Below, piece after piece: positions 4,505 through 60,123 of a DNA stretch of 64,000 bases. The notes below the pieces were generated by a model. It had not been told where the DNA came from. It searched no databases and saw nothing but the letters and a program-made list of their open reading frames with translations. The position numbers and the translations under genes were made by a program. This DNA comes from Flavobacterium sp. GTDB taxonomy: Bacteria; Bacteroidota; Bacteroidia; Flavobacteriales; Flavobacteriaceae. The stretch lies in assembly GCA_018401995.1 (NCBI GenBank), contig JAGYJR010000008.1, forward strand, positions 1 through 64,000, written 5' to 3'. Each line of letters begins with the position of its first letter. Positions within the stretch are counted from its first letter, which is position 1.

Positions 4505-4658
4505 AAAAAAGGTGAAATTTCTTTCACCCTTTTTGCCCCAAATCTACCATAAAACTTAACCTACTAATTTTCTGGTAGCGCTAAAGTATAGTGATAATTT
4601 CATAGCGAATAATTTAATTGTTGAATCGTCAAAATAATCGACGAAATGCATTTTACTA
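4505..4658 (-). repeat. Copy 1 of a duplicated ~150-bp intergenic unit (micro-ORF/sRNA-like, terminator-ended)
   Basis: The core gccccaaatctaccataaaacttaacctactaattttctggtag[c/g]gctaaagtat[a/g]gtg is repeated in copy 2 with 2 mismatches over about 59 bp; flanked by a hairpin ggtgaaa..tttcacc plus T-run and by tgcattttgtcga-like sequence. Confidence 0.8.
4556..4651 (-). CDS. Possible 31-aa micro-ORF MHFVDYFDDSTIKLFAMKLSLYFSATRKLVG (speculative)
   Basis: ATG at 4651 to TAA at 4556; copy 2 begins with the same MHFVD but is out of frame relative to copy 1 because of a 1-nt length difference. Confidence 0.25.
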   Translation of the reverse strand: MHFVDYFDDSTIKLFAMKLSLYFSATRKLVG

Positions 4659-4703
4659 AGAATTGAATATTTTCTTGATGTATAATTTTAAAAAAAGCAT
4701 AAA

Positions 4704-4860
4704 AAAAAGGTGAAATTACTTTCACCTTTTTGCCCCAAATCTACCATAAAACTTAACCTACTAATTTTCTGGTAGGGCTAAAGTATGGTGGGATTTTGTA
4801 TTCTTATAAAAAAATTGTTAAACGAATTAAAAAAATCGACAAAATGCATTTTTAGTAAGC
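4704..4860 (-). repeat. Copy 2 of the duplicated intergenic unit, abutting the 3' end of purF
   Basis: Same core (4732-4790) and terminator-like hairpin (aaaaaaaaggtgaaattactttcaccttttt) as copy 1. Confidence 0.8.
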
Positions 4861-27533: not shown

Positions 27534-29291
27534 TTGAAAATGAAAAAGTTAGCCCTGTTATTTACCATTTTTCTGCACACACTTTTAGCCGCTCAAGACG
27601 TAAAATTTGAAGCAAAAGTGAGTAAAAACTCGTTGGGATTAAATGAAAATCTACAAATCAGTTTTGCTTTCAATCAAGATGGTGACAACTTTTCGCCGCC
27701 TGATTTTGAAGGCTTCCGTTTGGTTGGTGGTCCGTTTCAATCTACGAGTTATTCTTGGGTCAATGGTGTAAAATCATTCAACAGAAGTTTTACTTATATT
27801 TTACAACCTACCAAAAAAGGTACGTTTACCATCAAATCAGCAAGCATTGAATTTAATGACGAAATTTACAAAACGGCTCCAATAAAAATTTCGGTAACTG
27901 ACGCCATTCAACAACCAAAAGACCCAAATAGTCCTGATTACAAAGCAGGTGAAGGCATTCATTTGGTAGCCGAAGTTTCCAAAGGAAATCCATATGTGAA
28001 CGAACCTTTAACCGTGGTTTACAAATTGTATTTCGATCCAAGATTCATTGTTCGAAATGTTCGTGAAGTGGCTAATCCAAAGTACAACGGTTTTTGGAGT
28101 CAGCATATTGATATTAAAAAATTGGAAGCTGTTGCTGGCACTTACAACGGACAAGATTATGCTATGGTAGTTTGGCGAAAAGTAATTTTATATCCGTTAG
28201 AAGCTGGAAACAAACCATTGGAACCGCTTTCTATAGTTTTAGATGTTGATGTTCCTACGAGAAAACGCATTGGTTTTATGGAAACTATGACTTATGAAAC
28301 CACTAGAAAAACAGTTTCCGCTGGAGCCAAGTCTATCAATGTGAAAGCGCTACCTGAAAAAGGAAAACCTGAAAATTTCACTGGAGCCGTTGGTGCTTTT
28401 GATTTCACTGTAAAAGCGTCTAAATCACAATTAAAAGCTGGAGAATCATTGGATTTGGTAGTAACCGCATCAGGAAATGGCAATTTGAAGTTGTTCCAAT
28501 TACCAAAACCTGAATTTCCAAATGCATTTGAAGTTTTTGATCCGCAACATAAGGAAGAAGTCAACACGCCATTAACTGGAATGACTGGGAAAATTTCAGA
28601 TACGTATACGATTATTCCGCAGTTTAAAGGAAAATATACCATCAAACCGCAATCTTTTTCATATTTCGATTTGAATTCCAATTCGTATAAAACCGTTACT
28701 TCTGAACCTATTGAAATTACGGTTTTGGAAGGAAATGCAGCAGCTAGTTCCACTCAAAACGATAGCAAAAAACCAGTAGTTAAAAACGATACGTTCCAAT
28801 ACATCAAGCTGACTTCGTATTTAACGCCAATTAACAAAACGCCATTTTTTGGTTCCAATTTGTTTTACGGATTGTTAGCCGCGCCGTTTTTGTTGTTACC
28901 AATAATTATTTTGGCAAGAAAGAAAAAAGAAGCCAGAGATGCCGATGAATTTGGAAACCGTGTTAGAAGAAATACCAAATTAGCGAAGAAATTCTTAGCC
29001 GATGCCAAAAAACAAATGGGCAACAAAGTACCGTTTTATTTGGCAATGGAAAAAGCGTTACACAATTTCTTGAAAGCCAAATTACACATTGAAACTTCGG
29101 AAATGAGTAAAGAAAATATTCAAGAATTGTTGTTGAACAAAAAAGCTTCAGAAGCTACTGTTGGGCAATTTATCACCTTGATGAACGATTGCGAATTTGC
29201 ACGATACACACCATCATCAGAAGTAGCGATGCAACAAGATTATAACAAAGCCGTTGAAGTGATTTCAGAATTGGAAAAACAAATAATTTAA
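27534..29291 (+). CDS. batD: BatD-family oxygen tolerance protein
   Basis: Signal peptide, VKFEAKVSKNSLGLNENLQISFAFNQDGDNFSPPDFEGFRLVGGP, C-terminal TM; operon context. An in-frame ATG at 27540 is the likelier start. Confidence 0.85.
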   Translation: MKMKKLALLFTIFLHTLLAAQDVKFEAKVSKNSLGLNENLQISFAFNQDGDNFSPPDFEGFRLVGGPFQSTSYSWVNGVKSFNRSFTYILQPTKKGTFTIKSASIEFNDEIYKTAPIKISVTDAIQQPKDPNSPDYKAGEGIHLVAEVSKGNPYVNEPLTVVYKLYFDPRFIVRNVREVANPKYNGFWSQHIDIKKLEAVAGTYNGQDYAMVVWRKVILYPLEAGNKPLEPLSIVLDVDVPTRKRIGFMETMTYETTRKTVSAGAKSINVKALPEKGKPENFTGAVGAFDFTVKASKSQLKAGESLDLVVTASGNGNLKLFQLPKPEFPNAFEVFDPQHKEEVNTPLTGMTGKISDTYTIIPQFKGKYTIKPQSFSYFDLNSNSYKTVTSEPIEITVLEGNAAASSTQNDSKKPVVKNDTFQYIKLTSYLTPINKTPFFGSNLFYGLLAAPFLLLPIIILARKKKEARDADEFGNRVRRNTKLAKKFLADAKKQMGNKVPFYLAMEKALHNFLKAKLHIETSEMSKENIQELLLNKKASEATVGQFITLMNDCEFARYTPSSEVAMQQDYNKAVEVISELEKQII

Positions 29292-29879
29292 CCACAAAGA
29301 GCACAAGGAAGGCACAAAGAACACAAAATAAATTAATGAAAATTCGTGAAATTCGTGTTTGATTGTGTTGGTTTAACCACAAAGGACACAAGGAAGGCAC
29401 AAAGAACACAAAGAGAATTAGTATGACTGAGCAAGAAATTTCTAAAATAGTATTTGATTGTGCTTTACGAGTTCACAAAGTTTTGGGTCCGGGTTTGTTA
29501 GAAAGTGCTTATGAGGAATGTTTGTTTTATGAGTTAAAAAAGACGAACCTAAAAGTTGAAAAACAAAAGCCTTTACCTTTAATTTATGAAGAAGTAAAGT
29601 TGGATGTTGGATACAGAATTGATATAATTATTGAAGATAAATTTATTGTTGAAATAAAATCAGTAGAAACATTAAATGATGTTCATTTAGCACAATTATT
29701 AACCTATTTAAGATTATCAGATTGCAAACTAGGGTTATTAATTAATTTTAATGTCAAACTTCTAAAAAATGGTGTGCAAAGAGTAATCAACGGAATTTTA
29801 TAGCCAAAGCTTAGTGACCACTTTAGTGGCTAAAAAACTTAGTGATCTTTGTGCCTTCTTAGTGCGCTTAGTGGTTAAA
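29289..29879. mobile_element. Candidate GxxExxY repeat element: gene bounded by accacaaag..-type inverted repeats
   Basis: Left: ttaaccacaaagagcacaaggaaggcacaaagaacacaaa (29288 on) and a second copy at 29373-29412; right: cttagtgatctttgtgccttcttagtgcgcttagtggttaa (29838-29878), an imperfect inverse. Confidence 0.5.
29423..29803 (+). CDS. GxxExxY protein
   Basis: VLGPGLLESAYEECLFYELKK...YRIDIIIEDKFIVEIKSVETLNDVHLAQLLTYLRLSDCKLGLLINFNVKLLKNGVQRVI; ATG at 29423 (MTEQEISK) likely start. Confidence 0.9.
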   Translation: MTEQEISKIVFDCALRVHKVLGPGLLESAYEECLFYELKKTNLKVEKQKPLPLIYEEVKLDVGYRIDIIIEDKFIVEIKSVETLNDVHLAQLLTYLRLSDCKLGLLINFNVKLLKNGVQRVINGIL

Positions 29880-50871: not shown

Positions 50872-53163
50872 ATGAAACAATATATTTGGCTTTTACTCCT
50901 TGTTAACTTTCAATTGTTTGCCCAACAAAACAATCAGTTGTGGAAAAGTTATTTTTCGTATAATGAAATTGTAGATGTAACTAATGGCTTGACTAATATT
51001 TATGCAGCCACAGATAATAGTGTGTTTACTAAAAATACTTCAACCGGAAACTTAAGTCAAACCAACTCAATAAATGGATTCAAACCTGAATCCATAACTT
51101 GTATAACTTATTCTGATACTGAAAACAAAACTTTTGTTGGCAACACCAACGGCTTGCTTTTAGTAATCAATGCTGATGGAAGTATCACTCAAAAAGTAGA
51201 TATTATTACTGAAGTTCCTGTTCCACCCAATAAAAAAAGAATCAACGATTTATACGAACACAACGGAAGAATCTATATTGCCACCGACTACGGAATTTCT
51301 GTACTCAATGCCTCTACTTTGGAATTTATAACTACTTATTTTATTGGACCAAATGGTGAAGAATTAGAAGTATTACAAACTACTGTAAAAGACAATGAAA
51401 TTTACGCGGTAACTAGAACAAACGGAATCAGAAAAGGCGACTTAAACAATCCTTTTTTATTCGATTTTGCTCAGTGGACAACATTTGACAATGGTTTTTG
51501 GACAGGAATTATCACATTTAACAACCAAATAATAGCCTCCAATACAAACGGAAGAACTTTTCGTTATAACGGAACTGTATTTGTTGAAATCCTAAATCAT
51601 TCTCAAGCCGGAATTAGACTAAAAACCAATCAATCCGAAATTATTGTTACTACTCCAATATCTGTTTTTGTTTTAAACCAAATGTTTAACACTATTGCTA
51701 CTATCACAAATACTTCCATTCCAGAATACAATCCTCGTTTCACAGCAGCAACAGTAGTTAATGGAAATTTATTCATTGGAACCGAAAAAGACGGACTTTT
51801 TGAAACAGTTTTAACTAACCCAAGCAGTTTTGAAAATATTTCTCCCAATGGCCCTTTGCAAAATTATATTTTTAGAGTAAAAAAAGGACCGAACAGACTT
51901 TGGGCTGTACATGGAAATTATAACCAACAATACAATCCATATCCTTTAGATGAATTAGGAATTAGTTATTTTGAAGAACAAAATGGCTGGGAAGTAATTC
52001 CTTATGAAGATTTATTAGAAGCAAAATCGTTATCCGACATCGCTATAAATCCAAATAACCCGAACGAAGTTTATATATCTTCTTTCTTTTCTGGACTTTT
52101 AAAGATTAATGGTAGTGACATCACACTTCAAAATAATACCAATACAGGACCTAATGGTTTAGAATCTTTAGTTTTATCGCCGCCTAATCCTTCTTATGTT
52201 GACATTCGTATCAACAGTCCCACCTTTGATAGTGATGGCAATCTTTGGGTTACTAATGCTTTTGTTAATCGCGGAATTAAAGTTTTACGAGGAAACCAAT
52301 GGCAATCGTACAATTTACAAGGCATTACAGCAAATATTTCAACTGGAAGATATAATAATATCGCTATTGATAGAAATAAAACTAAATGGATTGCTGCTTA
52401 CAACGATGGGATAGTAGCATTCAATGAAAATTTGAACAACAAATTCATCAATATTAATGTAAATAACGGCAACTTGCCCGATCCTGTAGTAACTTGTGTA
52501 GCATTGGATAATAGAAACCAACTATGGATTGGAACTTTTAGAGGATTACGAATCCTATCAAGCGTTGACCGATTTCTATCAGAAACCGAATTAACCACAA
52601 CCAACATTGTGATTCAAGAAGGAGATTTGGCACAAGAACTTTTCTTCCAGCAATCCATCATCGATATTGCAGTTGATGGTGCTAATAGAAAATGGGTATC
52701 TATTGCAAATGGAGGTGTGTTTTTGGTTTCTGCTAACGGACAAGAAACTATATATCGCTTTGACAAAGACAACTCGCCATTGCCAAGTAACAATATTTTA
52801 GACATCGAAATTGACGGAACTTCAGGCGAAGTGTTTTTTGCAACCGATAAAGGAATGGTCTCCTTTTTAGGAACATCAACCAAACCAAGTGACAGTTTAG
52901 CCGATGTTTTCGTTTATCCCAATCCTGTACGACCAGGGTTTGTTGGTACAGTGAAAATTAGCGGATTAACCGATAGGGCTAATATTAAAATAACCGATAT
53001 TGAAGGGAATTTGGTTTTCGAAACCACTTCATCTGGAGGAACTATAGAATGGGATACAACAGCTTTTGGAAAATATAAAGTAGCATCAGGCGTTTACATG
53101 ATTTTTGTTGCCAGCCAAGACGGAACAGATTCTGCGGTTAAAAAAGTAATGGTAATTAGATAA
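50872..53163 (+). CDS. porZ: PorZ-like beta-propeller protein with T9SS-type C-terminal domain
   Basis: WKSYFSYNEIVDVTNGLTNIYAATDNSVF, two-component-regulator-type propeller repeats, VFVYPNPVRPGFVGTVKISGL...YMIFVASQDGTDSAVKKVMVIR. Confidence 0.85.
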   Translation: MKQYIWLLLLVNFQLFAQQNNQLWKSYFSYNEIVDVTNGLTNIYAATDNSVFTKNTSTGNLSQTNSINGFKPESITCITYSDTENKTFVGNTNGLLLVINADGSITQKVDIITEVPVPPNKKRINDLYEHNGRIYIATDYGISVLNASTLEFITTYFIGPNGEELEVLQTTVKDNEIYAVTRTNGIRKGDLNNPFLFDFAQWTTFDNGFWTGIITFNNQIIASNTNGRTFRYNGTVFVEILNHSQAGIRLKTNQSEIIVTTPISVFVLNQMFNTIATITNTSIPEYNPRFTAATVVNGNLFIGTEKDGLFETVLTNPSSFENISPNGPLQNYIFRVKKGPNRLWAVHGNYNQQYNPYPLDELGISYFEEQNGWEVIPYEDLLEAKSLSDIAINPNNPNEVYISSFFSGLLKINGSDITLQNNTNTGPNGLESLVLSPPNPSYVDIRINSPTFDSDGNLWVTNAFVNRGIKVLRGNQWQSYNLQGITANISTGRYNNIAIDRNKTKWIAAYNDGIVAFNENLNNKFININVNNGNLPDPVVTCVALDNRNQLWIGTFRGLRILSSVDRFLSETELTTTNIVIQEGDLAQELFFQQSIIDIAVDGANRKWVSIANGGVFLVSANGQETIYRFDKDNSPLPSNNILDIEIDGTSGEVFFATDKGMVSFLGTSTKPSDSLADVFVYPNPVRPGFVGTVKISGLTDRANIKITDIEGNLVFETTSSGGTIEWDTTAFGKYKVASGVYMIFVASQDGTDSAVKKVMVIR

Positions 53164-53197
53164 TACCTATCTCCCGTCACCTAACACCCATCACCTT

Positions 53198-53223
53198 AAA
53201 AATGCTCGTCAAAACTAAAGCCA
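53198..53223 (+). repeat. 26-bp copy of the recO 5' end (left)
   Basis: aaaaatgctcgtcaaaactaaagcca, identical to 55929-55954. Confidence 0.9.
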
Positions 53224-54719
53224 GGTTTAACGGCGGCTTATGAATTTCAAAAACATACAGAAATTCAACCTATTTTAGTTGAGGCAACAGATTTATGGGG
53301 CGGAATTTCAAGAACCGAAAATCACAATGGAAACAGAATTGATATCGGCGGACATCGATTTTTTTCAAAATCTGATGTGGTAATGCAATGGTGGCAAGAA
53401 ATTTTACCAATTTATTCAGAAACAAATGAAATAGAAATTACTTATCAAAACCAACGTTCCACAATTGAAGTAAACTCAAAAAACAATGATTCTGAAGCTG
53501 TTTTTTTAGTCAGAAAAAGGTTGTCAAGAATTTTTTTTGATAAAAAATTCTTTGATTATCCTATAAAATTAAGCTTTAAAACAATTTCAAAATTAGGGTA
53601 TTTAAACACGCTTTTAATACTTTTTAGTTATTTAAAAAGCGTTATCTTTCCAATAAAAAACGAAAAATCGTTAGAAGATTTTTTTATTAACCGATTTGGT
53701 ATTCGTTTGTATCAAACTTTTTTTAAAGACTATACAGAAAAGTTTGGGGAGTTTCTTGTTCTGAAATTAGTGCAGAATGGGGTGCGCAACGAATAAAAGG
53801 ACTTTCAATAACCAAAACAATTCTTGACATTCTCCAGAAACCTTTTAGAAAGAAAGACATTAATCAAAAAAAAACGGAAACATCATTAATTGAATATTTT
53901 TTGTATCCCAAATACGGTCCAGGCCAATTGTGGACTAAAGTAGCTGAACTTATTGAAGAAAAAGGAGGAATACTTTACAAAAACGCTAAAGTTGTTCAAC
54001 TCAACGGAACAAATGAATTGACTTCTGCTTTGATTGAAACAGGAAAAGAAAAAATTCAATCTACCATTACATTTGATTACTGCATTTCAACAATGCCAAT
54101 AAAAGATTTATTTAATGCTTTTTCTTTTTCTATTCCGTCAGATATTAAAAATATTTCAGATAATTTAGTCTATCGAGATTTTATCACTGTTGGTATATTG
54201 TTGAATAAAACAAGAATTGAACTAAACGACAATTGGATTTACATTCAAGAAAGCTATGTAAAAGTAGGAAGAATTCAAGTGTTCAATAATTGGAGCCCTT
54301 TTTTAGTTTCTAATGCGGAAACCACTTGGTTGGGATTGGAATATTTTTGTAATGAAAATGATGTGCTTTGGCAATTAAATAAAAAAGAATTAATTGCACA
54401 AGCCACTCAAGAATTAATACAGCTAGGTTTTATCGATTCTTCTAAAAATGTTTTGGACGCAACAGTTATCAAAGTTCCTAAAACTTATCCTGCTTATTTT
54501 GGAACCTATAGTGAATTTTATAAAATCAGAAACTTTGTTGATGTCATTCCAAATTTATTTTTAGTAGGAAGAAATGGAATGCATAAATATAACAACCAAG
54601 ATCATTCCATGTTAACGGCAATGCAAGCGGTTCAAAACATAAAGAACGGTATTTTATCTAAAGAAAATATTTGGTCTATAAATACGGAAGAAGAATATCA
54701 TGAAGAGAAAAAACAATAA
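53222..54719 (+). pseudogene. FAD/NAD(P)-dependent oxidoreductase (HemY/UGM-like), 5'-truncated and frameshifted
   Basis: Reads [57 protein letters not shown] without the expected VIIGAGPA start; shift near 53741 ([25 protein letters not shown] in next frame) between ORFs 53377-53796 and 53901-54719. Confidence 0.8.
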
Positions 54720-55949
54720 TTTCTCAAAGACTATCTTTACATTTATCATATTCTATATTGTTTTGCTTTTATTGCGACTATGGAATGGTAACTTCTATCT
54801 TGTAGATTCTTATGAATATCTCGAAGTTGCAAAATTGATTATTCAAGGTGATTATTTTACTACTGATAATCTAATAATCAGCAGAAGGCCTTTTGTTTAT
54901 CCATTATTTTTATCCTTAACTTCTACATTTAATCCATTTGTAATTGTATTTTTTCAATCAATACTTTTGTTTAAGTTTCCTTTTTTTTATATAAAATTAA
55001 TAGATTTTATAAAATAAAAAGCGAAATTTGTTATTGATTTTAGTTCTATTAACGCCATCGATTTTTATATATTCACAATTAGTAATGTCTGAATTACTAA
55101 TTCTTTTCTTGATTACGCTACTTTTTTATTTGTATATCGTTCACTTTCAATGGAAAAACATTAAGTATGCACAGCTAATAATAACAATATTAGTATTCAC
55201 AAAACCCGTGTTTTATCCCTTCGTATTTATAAATTTAGGGCTAATGTTCGTTTATTTTTACAAAGTAAAACGATTCAATTTTTGGGTTTTATTGCCTGTT
55301 TTATCGGTTCTATTGTACATCAATTTCAACCAAAATAAATTTGGCTATAAACACTTTTCCTCAATGGAAAACAAAAACCTCATTTATTACAATTTATATT
55401 ACTTCAAAGCGAACAATGAATCAAAAAACATTGCCAATCAATGGATTTCAAATATAAACAAAGAGTTAGAAGATAAAAAAGAAAAAGAAAAAAATGAGTT
55501 CTTAAAGAATATTGCACATCATGAAATAAAGAAAAACTTTCTATCGTATACTTTTTATCATATCTCAACTGGAATAAGAGGTGTTTTTGATCCTCGATGG
55601 TTAATGTATTATTGCAAAAGAAGACGGCAGACAAGGTTTTCTTGAAATATTGAATGGAAATAAGCCTTTTTCCTCTTTGTTTTCAAATAAATCATTGATG
55701 CTAATTTACGTTTTGTTAATTCCAATTTTTCTCGCACTACTTTTTAAATGGTTTCATTTTTTTAAATTCTATTTGACTAAAAAAAGAAGTTTCTCCGAAT
55801 ATTTCTTCTTAGTTTTTATCGGTTATTATGTTCTGATAACTGGTCCTGTAAATTGTTCCCGATATATGATGCCTTTACAATTCGTTCTAATTACTTTTGT
55901 ATTAGTTTCAGTTAAAGAAAACAAATTAAAAAATGCTCGTCAAAACTAA
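54700..55949 (+). pseudogene. Glycosyltransferase-like multi-TM protein broken into three ORFs
   Basis: 54700-55017 MKRKNN..LLRLWNGNFYLVDSYEYLEVAKLI; 55028-55645 LLTPSIFIYSQLVMSELLILFLITLL; 55650-55949 ending VKENKLKNARQN* inside the recO start. Confidence 0.65.
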
Positions 55950-55954
55950 AGCCA
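55929..55954 (+). repeat. 26-bp copy of the recO 5' end (right; native start)
   Basis: aaaaatgctcgtcaaaactaaagcca, identical to 53198-53223. Confidence 0.9.
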
Positions 55955-56646
55955 TAGTAATTTCCACTTTAAAATTTCAAGAAAAAAGCTTGATTGTAAA
56001 ATGCTTTACGCTTTCGGACGGACTAAAATCTTATTTTGTAAACAATGCTTTCACAGGGAAAAAGAACAACCAAAAAATTGCTTTTTTTCAACCGTTAGCC
56101 CAATTAGAAATTGAAGCCTATCATAAAAACAAAGATACTTTGGAACGCTTTAAAGAAATTAAAATTCAAAATCCGTATCATTCATTACACCAAGATATTA
56201 CCAAAACCACAATTATATTATTTCTTTCCGAAGTATTACATCATGCCATCAAAGAAGATGGAAAAAACGAACCGCTTTTTGAGTTTTTAGAAACTGCTTT
56301 TACATGGTTAGACAACCACGATGAAATTGCCAATTTTCACTTGATAACTTTGTTACAAGTAACCAAATATCTCGGTTTTTATCCCCAAAACCCCGATAAT
56401 GAAAACCCTTATTTTGAAATTACTGAAGGTGTTTTTGTCCCATTTGAAGGTGTAAGTTGTTTATCGAAAGAAACTACGCAATTATTTAGGAAACTGATGG
56501 AGCTGCGCTACCAAGACAACCAAAAAATATTCTCCTCAACCCAACGGCAAGAACTGCTAAAAATTCTCATGGATTATTACACGTTCAATATTGATGGTTT
56601 TAAAAAACCCAAATCATTAGAAATTCTAAAGGAAGTTTTTGCTTAA
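55933..56646 (+). CDS. recO: DNA repair protein RecO
   Basis: MLVKTKAIVISTLKFQEKSLIVKCFTLSDGLKSYFVNNAF; OB-fold N-terminus. Confidence 0.9.
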   Translation: MLVKTKAIVISTLKFQEKSLIVKCFTLSDGLKSYFVNNAFTGKKNNQKIAFFQPLAQLEIEAYHKNKDTLERFKEIKIQNPYHSLHQDITKTTIILFLSEVLHHAIKEDGKNEPLFEFLETAFTWLDNHDEIANFHLITLLQVTKYLGFYPQNPDNENPYFEITEGVFVPFEGVSCLSKETTQLFRKLMELRYQDNQKIFSSTQRQELLKILMDYYTFNIDGFKKPKSLEILKEVFA

Positions 56647-56725
56647 TTACTAACTTTTGCCTTTTACCTTTTGCCTTTTACCTTTAAATCATTACTTTCG
56701 CAAATTGATTTTAGAAAGCGACAAA

Positions 56726-59700
56726 ATGAGCACAAAATTTACTGAATACAAAGGACTTGACTTGCCAACAGTAGCATCAGAAGTTCTTGATTTTTGGAAA
56801 AAAAACAACATCTTTGAACAATCGGTAACTTCTCGTGAAGGAGCTACACCTTACGTGTTTTTTGAAGGACCACCATCTGCAAATGGTTTGCCTGGTATTC
56901 ACCACGTAATGGCGCGTGCGATTAAAGATATTTTTTGTCGTTATAAAACTCAAAAAGGTTACCAAGTTAAGCGTAAAGCAGGCTGGGATACGCACGGATT
57001 ACCAGTAGAATTAGGTACCGAAAAAGAATTAGGCATTACCAAAGAAGATATCGGAAAAACCATTTCCGTTACCGAATACAACGAAGCGTGTAAAAGAACC
57101 GTTATGCGTTACACCGACGTATGGAATGATCTTACGGAAAAAATGGGCTATTGGGTAGATATGGAAGATATGTAACTTACAAATCCAAATACATGGAAAC
57201 GGTTTGGTGGTTACTAAAACAAATTTACAACAAAGATCTACTATACAAAGGCTACACGATTCAGCCGTATTCGCCAAAAGCGGGAACAGGTTTGTCTTCG
57301 CACGAAGTTAACCAGCCAGGTTCATACCGTGATGTTACCGATACTACGATTGTCGCGCAGTTTAAAGCAAAAGACGAAACGTTACCAAGTTTCTTGCAAG
57401 GTTTTGGAACGGTTCATTTCTTAGCTTGGACAACAACTCCTTGGACATTACCGTCAAATACAGCATTGACTGTTGGCCCAAAAATCGATTATGTTTTAGT
57501 AAAAACTTTCAATCAATATACTTTTGAAGCGGTGAATGTAGTTTTAGCTAAGAATTTAGTTGGAAAACAATTCGGAGGAAAGTATTTTGTTGCGGAATCA
57601 GAAGCAGATTTTGCAAATTACAAATCAGAAGATAAAAAGATTCCATACCAAATCTTAGCAGAAGTAAAAGGCGCTGATTTAGTAGGAATTCGTTATGAAC
57701 AATTATTACCATTAGCATTACCTTATCAAAATCCAGAAAATGCTTTTAGAGTAATTTCAGGTGATTTCGTTACTACGGAAGACGGAACTGGAATTGTACA
57801 CACAGCACCAACATTTGGAGCTGATGATGCTAAAGTGGCTAAAGAAGCAACTCCAGAAGTGCCACCAATGTTAGTCTTAGACGAAAACGGAAATCCTGTT
57901 CCATTGGTAGACTTACAAGGTAGATTTGTCGCTGGATTAGGTGACTTATCAGGAAAATACGTTAAAAACGAATATTACAACGACGGAGAAGCACCAGAGC
58001 GTTCAGCTGACGTGGAAATCGCTATCCAATTAAAAGAAGAAAATAAGGCTTTCAAAGTCGAAAAATACGTGCATAGTTATCCACATTGTTGGAGAACTGA
58101 TAAACCGATTTTATATTATCCATTAGATTCTTGGTTCATCAAAGTAACCGAAATCAAAGATAGAATGTTCGACTTAAACGAAACCATCAACTGGAAACCA
58201 AAAGCTACAGGAGAAGGTCGTTTCGGAAATTGGTTGAAAAACGCTAATGATTGGAACTTATCGCGTTCACGTTATTGGGGAATTCCTTTACCAATTTGGA
58301 GAAGCGAAGATGGAACCGAAGAAATGTTGGTAGGTTCGGTTGAGGAATTATATAACGAAATCGAAAAATCCATCGCGGCAGGTTTCCAAAAAGAAAATCC
58401 ATACAAAGGATTCAAAATTGGCGACATGAGCGAATCCAACTATGATTTAGTGGATTTACACAAAAATGTAGTTGACGGAATTGTTTTAGTTTCTCCATCA
58501 GGACAACCAATGAAACGCGAAACGGATTTAATTGACGTTTGGTTCGATTCAGGAGCTATGCCATATGCACAATGGCATTATCCATTCGAAAACAAAGAAT
58601 TAATCGACGAAAATAAAGCTTTCCCAGCTGATTTCATTGCAGAAGGTGTTGACCAAACTCGTGGTTGGTTTTATACTTTACATGCGATTGGGACATTAGT
58701 TTTTGATAAAATTGCATACAAAAACGTAGTTTCAAACGGATTGGTTTTGGACAAAAACGGACAAAAAATGTCGAAACGTTTAGGAAATGCGGTTGACCCA
58801 TTCACCACTTTGTCAGAATATGGTCCAGATGCTACGCGTTGGTACATGATTTCCAATGCAAATCCTTGGGATAACTTAAAATTTGATATCGAAGGCGTTG
58901 CTGAAGTAAGAAGAAAATTCTTCGGAACACTTTATAATACGTATTCGTTCTTTGCTTTATATGCAAATATCGATGGTTTTAAATATGATGAAGCGGAAGT
59001 TCCATTAAACGAAAGACCAGAAATCGACCGTTGGATTTTATCGGAATTACATACTTTAATTCAATTAGTAGATGAAGCGTATGCAGATTATGAACCAACA
59101 AAAGCGGCTCGTGCTATTTCCGATTTCGTTCAAGAAAACTTGAGTAACTGGTACGTTCGTTTGTGTAGAAGAAGATTCTGGAAAGGCGATTATGCGCAAG
59201 ATAAAATTGCAGCTTATCAAACACTTTATACTTGTTTGGTAACGGTTGCGAAGCTTTCTGCGCCAATTGCACCGTTCTTTATGGACAAACTTTACAGAGA
59301 TTTAACACAAGCGACAGGTTCTGAGTCGTTTGAAAGCGTACATTTGGCGGAGTTTCCAAAAATGGTTGAAAACTTTGTTGATAAATCATTAGAAAGCAAA
59401 ATGGGGAAAGCGCAAACGGTTTCTTCATTGGTTTTATCACTTCGTAAAAAGGAGATGATTAAAGTACGCCAACCTTTACAAAGAATAATGATTCCGGTAC
59501 TTGACAAGGGTTTTAAAGCAGAAATTGAAGCTATATCTGATTTAATTAAAGCGGAAGTAAACGTAAAAGAAATTGAATTATTGGAAGATGCTTCTGGTGT
59601 TTTAGTGAAGCAAATTAAACCAAATTTTAAAGCACTTGGCCCGCGTTTTGGAAAAGACATGGGTTTGATTTCCAAAGAGATACAAAATTTTTCTCAAGAA

Positions 59701-60123
59701 CAAATCAATCAATTAGACAAAGAAAATGCGTTAACCATTGAAATATCAGGAAAAAGTATTAATTTAACATCCGAAGACGTGGAGATTTCTTCACAAGATA
59801 TTCCGGGTTGGTTAGTAGCTAATGCAAACGGAATTACGGTAGCGCTAGACATTACCATTTCAGAAGAATTACGTAATGAAGGAATTGCCAGAGAACTTGT
59901 GAATCGAATTCAAAATATCCGAAAAGATTCTGGTTTTGAAGTAACAGATAAAATACATGTTCAATTGTTAAAAAACGACACAATTGAAAAAGCAGTTAAA
60001 GCAAATGAAAGTTACATCAAATCAGAAACACTTACTAAAGAGCTTATTTTTGTAGACCAATTAGAAAATGGTACGGAAATTGAGTTTGATGAGTTACAAA
60101 CAAGAGTATTAATTTCTAAATAA
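56726..60123 (+). CDS. ileS: Isoleucyl-tRNA synthetase, with apparent 4-nt deletion near 57169 splitting the ORF
   Basis: EGPPSANGLPGIHHVMARAIKDIFCRYKTQKGYQVKRKAGWDTHGLPVE; second ORF [43 protein letters not shown]. Confidence 0.95.

What the first reader, a model, noticed from the sequence alone, without database searches (positions are those of the whole stretch)
53198..55954. recO start duplicated: 26-bp exact direct repeat flanks a 2.7-kb block of truncated, frameshifted genes
Seen directly: aaaaatgctcgtcaaaactaaagcca occurs at 53198-53223 and at 55929-55954, where it is the native recO start (MLVKTKA). Immediately right of the left copy the sequence enters mid-gene into an FAD oxidoreductase (..[11 protein letters not shown].., missing its GAGPA dinucleotide-binding start). 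The last gene in the block (a multi-TM glycosyltransferase-like protein) runs into the right copy and terminates inside the recO start (..KNARQN*). Inference: the ancestral order was probably porZ-recO, and a fragment of a polysaccharide locus was inserted at recO codon 7-8, duplicating the target. No transposase or terminal inverted repeats are evident, so the mechanism (capture, template switch, remnant of a larger element, or misassembly) is open.
Basis: partly seen in the sequence, partly recalled or inferred. Interest (0 to 1): 0.75.

Follow-up and report, generated by a model that had tools for sequence, protein, structure and literature searches.

The report
Chimeric join in a metagenome assembly
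The duplicated recO start is most likely a contig-assembly fault: a genome version with porZ directly next to recO was spliced to another version that carries two intact, ordinary accessory genes between porZ and recO, so it is not a new kind of DNA insertion.

Summary
In detail: an exact 26-bp direct repeat (53198-53223 and 55929-55954), a 5'-truncated FAD oxidoreductase and a frameshifted membrane glycosyltransferase-like gene lie between porZ and recO. The genome is a 99-contig, 82%-complete draft. A second contig of it (C53, 4,246 bp) carries the same block, recO and the start of ileS, with both block genes open. Window and C53 differ in 53276-56958 only by three tight indel patches; outside them not one base differs in about 3.6 kb. 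A fourth fault, a 4-base loss at 57167, breaks the essential ileS in the window but not in C53. After 57293 the two diverge by about 10%. Relatives carry the same pair, intact, exactly between porZ and recO, and recO natively starts inside the end of the glycosyltransferase-like gene in C53 and two relatives. Most other genomes have porZ directly beside recO, ending in the same recO start as the left copy. The window is therefore best read as an 'empty' porZ-recO haplotype joined to a 'filled' haplotype at recO codon 8. The right copy is native; the left copy marks the false join. A real, very recent one-sided recombination cannot be excluded without reads.

The parts
50872..53163 (+). porZ, intact; belongs to the 'empty' (porZ-recO) haplotype side of the join
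   Evidence: PorZ N-terminal beta-propeller and Por secretion tail; followed by a spacer and recO start as in relatives without the block
53198..53223 (+). Left copy of the 26-bp repeat: first codons of recO after porZ, reads [13 protein letters not shown] then stop, out of frame with the FAD gene
53223..53224 (.). Left junction: recO codon 7/8 abuts FAD oxidoreductase codon about 13; probable chimeric join
   Evidence: no relative examined has this junction
53224..54719 (+). FAD-dependent oxidoreductase (PRK07208 type, Amino_oxidase/NAD_binding_8), 5' end missing, frameshift at 53737
   Evidence: C53 copy open over 480 aa
54700..55949 (+). Multi-TM glycosyltransferase-like gene, broken in the window at 54971-55024 and 55595-55608; its 3' end natively overlaps the recO start
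   Evidence: C53 copy open over 419 aa; differences located; same overlap in L031 and L037
55929..55954 (+). Right copy of the 26-bp repeat: native recO start
55933..56646 (+). recO, intact, 100% identical to the C53 copy
57167..57168 (.). Four-base loss that splits ileS into two ORFs in the window; absent from C53; near the probable right boundary of the foreign patch
57294..57506 (+). ileS stretch where window and C53 become about 10% different (22 substitutions in 213 bp): return to the other haplotype

Best explanation
The window contig is a chimera of two co-assembled haplotypes of one environmental Flavobacterium-type population. Haplotype A has porZ followed directly by recO. Haplotype B has an intact FAD oxidoreductase and a membrane glycosyltransferase-like gene before recO and ileS (and, by analogy with relatives, porZ before them). 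The assembler or gap closer left A at the recO start, where A and B share an exact 26-bp word, filled the gap with B sequence (53224 to about 57167-57293), and went back to A inside ileS. Shown: the second copy with open genes, the error pattern, the haplotype divergence in ileS, and both gene orders in relatives. Inferred: that the left junction itself is false, and that the 26-bp length reflects a k-mer overlap (k=27).
For: The assembly is an incomplete draft (99 contigs, 81.66% complete, 2.03% contamination) with a second copy of the block on a 4.2-kb contig. C53 reads FAD (480 aa, open), glycosyltransferase-like gene (419 aa), recO and ileS without interruption. In 53276-56958 all differences are in three patches (53737; 54971-55024; 55595-55608), with no isolated substitution, which is not how pseudogenes decay. 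A 4-base loss breaks the essential ileS only in the window copy. After 57293 the copies differ by 22 substitutions in 213 bp. Relatives L036-L039 and G160 have gdhA-porZ-FAD-GT, with recO-ileS following wherever the contig reaches that far. Empty-site relatives L034 and L035 have porZ, a short spacer, then a recO start nearly identical to the left copy: the left flank of the window is such an empty junction. FAD and GT evolve under purifying selection (dN/dS 0.08 and 0.17 against L036), so they were working genes until very recently.
Against: No reads were available. C53 stops 52 bp to the right of the left junction, so it does not itself contradict that junction. No contig with haplotype A's own recO or haplotype B's porZ was found in the bin. 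The match of 26 to a k-1 overlap is a guess about an unknown assembler.
Confidence: 0.82

Rival explanations
1. Real one-sided recombination: a porZ-recO strain took up a fragment FAD'-GT-recO-ileS' from a filled strain; the right end crossed over by homology in recO/ileS and the left end joined illegitimately at recO codon 8, leaving a stub of the recipient recO (homology-facilitated illegitimate recombination).
For: It would give exactly this anatomy, including a repeat that is the recipient's leftover recO start; the process is documented in naturally competent bacteria and in E. coli conjugation (PMC3240628, abstract). The haplotype switch in ileS would be its homologous end.
Against: It does not explain the three indel patches without any isolated substitution, nor the broken ileS, nor the second contig with open genes; an assembly fault must be assumed anyway.
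Confidence: 0.14
2. Insertion of a mobile or captured polysaccharide fragment into recO with a 26-bp target duplication.
For: Exact direct repeat flanks the block; the empty state porZ-recO is common.
Against: No transposase or terminal inverted repeats were found at the ends; the same genes lie intact at the same place in relatives, and in C53, L031 and L037 the right 26-bp copy or its equivalent is simply the native overlap of the glycosyltransferase-like gene with recO.
Confidence: 0.02
3. True pseudogenisation of a resident FAD-GT pair in this strain after a local rearrangement.
For: Window reading frames are broken.
Against: No isolated substitution against the open copy in about 3.6 kb; damage is confined to three patches and extends into essential ileS.
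Confidence: 0.02

Closest known systems
Strain-chimeric contigs in metagenome assemblies
   Same: Join at a short exact word shared by two haplotypes, duplicate copy of the region on a small contig, clustered indels and a broken essential gene near the joints
   Different: Could not be confirmed by read mapping here
Accessory gene pair between porZ and recO in Flavobacterium (FAD oxidoreductase of PRK07208 type plus membrane glycosyltransferase-like protein)
   Same: Same genes, order, orientation and position as L037, L039 and G160, and as L036 and L038 as far as their contigs reach
   Different: In the window the FAD start is replaced by a porZ-recO spacer plus 26 bp of recO, and frames are broken
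Homology-facilitated illegitimate recombination
   Same: One homologous and one illegitimate end would leave such a stub
   Different: Does not account for the indel patches or the ileS break

Membership tests
Transposon or insertion-sequence insertion with target-site duplication | Direct repeat at both ends | tested here: met
   26 bp exact, but the right copy is the native gene overlap
Transposon or insertion-sequence insertion with target-site duplication | Transposase and terminal inverted repeats | tested here: not met
   No inverted-repeat pair at the block ends; no transposase among the block ORFs by Pfam
Transposon or insertion-sequence insertion with target-site duplication | Inserted DNA foreign to the site in relatives | tested here: not met
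   Same genes intact between porZ and recO in L037, L039 and G160, and after porZ in L036 and L038, whose contigs end within the glycosyltransferase-like gene
Strain-chimeric contig | Second haplotype of the region in the same assembly | tested here: met
   C53
Strain-chimeric contig | Sequence faults concentrated in the patch, essential gene broken | tested here: met
   Faults at 53737, 54971-55024, 55595-55608 and 57167
Strain-chimeric contig | No reads spanning the junction | not testable with these tools
   Reads not held
Homology-facilitated illegitimate recombination | One homologous and one illegitimate junction, present in real molecules | tested here: inconclusive
   Anatomy fits; reality of the left junction not testable

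The most novel reading that the evidence does not exclude
A genuine, very recent one-sided recombination between an empty and a filled porZ-recO haplotype in a natural Flavobacterium population, caught with its illegitimate junction still unrepaired.
Probability: 0.14. Interest if true: 0.3.

Novelty: not a real feature. Interest (0 to 1): 0.08.

Why it matters
It matters mainly as a warning: a short exact repeat flanking broken genes in a draft metagenome contig can look like a mobile-element insertion while being a splice of two strains. The useful residue is that the porZ-recO interval is a variable spot in Flavobacterium, usually empty and sometimes filled by an intact oxidoreductase-glycosyltransferase pair.

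Tried and rejected
I considered that this contig's number was out of length order and thus a merged contig; contig lengths fit plain alphabetical numbering (C1, C12, C34, C56 and C78 being the large ones), so this was dropped. Among 20 other contigs sampled, and C53, only C53 duplicates this contig, so the fault looks local. A recO search in the genomes of L036 and L038 found nothing, and those contigs end before recO. Pfam and NCBIfam did not name the glycosyltransferase-like protein, so that label rests on its multi-TM look and is weak. Other neighbouring short same-strand ORFs that I checked for frameshifts were either separate Pfam families or without a match.

Full report
Observation. The 26-bp sequence is present exactly twice, at 53198-53223 and 55929-55954, and is not expected by chance. 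It is maximal: the next base on either side differs. The left copy follows porZ by a short spacer; from its ATG one reads [13 protein letters not shown] and a stop, out of frame with the FAD gene. The right copy starts the intact 237-aa recO. Between them are a 5'-truncated FAD oxidoreductase and a multi-TM protein, both frameshifted.

A second copy. Searching the window's own assembly (99 contigs, 2.37 Mb, 81.66% complete, 2.03% contamination) with the block finds contig C53, 4,246 bp long, at 99% identity. C53 carries FAD oxidoreductase, glycosyltransferase-like gene, recO and the start of ileS, all in open frames. The C53 FAD gene runs off the contig end, 52 bp to the right of the left junction in window terms.

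Where the two copies differ. From 53276 to 56958 the window and C53 differ only at 53737, in a patch at 54971-55024 and in a patch at 55595-55608; there is not one isolated substitution in the remaining roughly 3.6 kb. One substitution lies at 56959 and a 4-base loss at 57167 splits ileS in the window, while C53 is open there. From 57294 to the end of C53 there are 22 substitutions in 213 bp. So the block, recO and the beginning of ileS in the window are the same haplotype as C53 with local faults, and then the window returns to another haplotype. Gene decay would scatter substitutions and would not hit an essential tRNA synthetase.

Relatives. The same pair lies intact after porZ in L036 (FAD 91% aa identity), L037, L038 and L039, and in the two-contig genome G160; recO and ileS follow in L037, L039 and G160, while the L036 and L038 contigs end within the glycosyltransferase-like gene. 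In C53, L037 and L031 the glycosyltransferase-like gene natively ends inside the recO start, so the right copy needs no special explanation. In the nearest genus members with porZ and recO on one contig, the two genes are nearly always neighbours, with G012 (a glycosyltransferase-like gene only) and G013 (another gene) as exceptions. The empty junctions look just like the left flank here: porZ, short spacer, recO start. The FAD gene is rare in the genus: 5 of 149 other genomes sampled, one of them only a distant (36%) match, and next to recO in one. Purifying selection on FAD and GT is strong (dN/dS 0.08 and 0.17 against L036).

Synthesis. Two haplotypes, empty (porZ-recO) and filled (porZ-FAD-GT-recO), explain every piece of the window. 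The simplest account is a chimeric contig that leaves the empty haplotype at the 26-bp word shared with the filled haplotype, continues in the filled one and returns in ileS. That the word is 26 bp would fit the k-1 overlap of a k=27 assembly graph, but the assembler is unknown and this is a guess. The remaining doubt is the left junction: no contig of the bin contradicts it directly, and homology-facilitated illegitimate recombination (reported, for example, in PMC3240628) could make such a junction in nature. Even then the frame damage in the window would most likely be assembly error. I put 0.82 on the chimera and 0.14 on a real recent recombination.

Verdict. The sequence is as described, but it is not evidence for a mobile element or target duplication. 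Interest is low.

Noticed in passing
window 56657-60123: ileS is split by a 4-base loss at 57167 although the gene is essential; another contig of the assembly is open at this place, so this is most likely an assembly fault.
   Followed up: yes
window 55933-56646: recO of this genome is unusually divergent: 61-64% aa identity to all six relatives compared, which share 72-93% among themselves, while neighbouring gdhA and ileS are much closer to some of them.
   Followed up: partly
window 53164-55928; L032 2562-3597; L031 2695-3972: The porZ-recO interval is a variable spot in the genus: usually empty, sometimes filled by FAD+GT, by GT alone, or by another gene.
   Followed up: partly
window 4505-4822 and 29287-29420: Two short tandem-like repeat pairs: 121 bp at 79% identity and 49 bp at 90% identity.
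   Followed up: no
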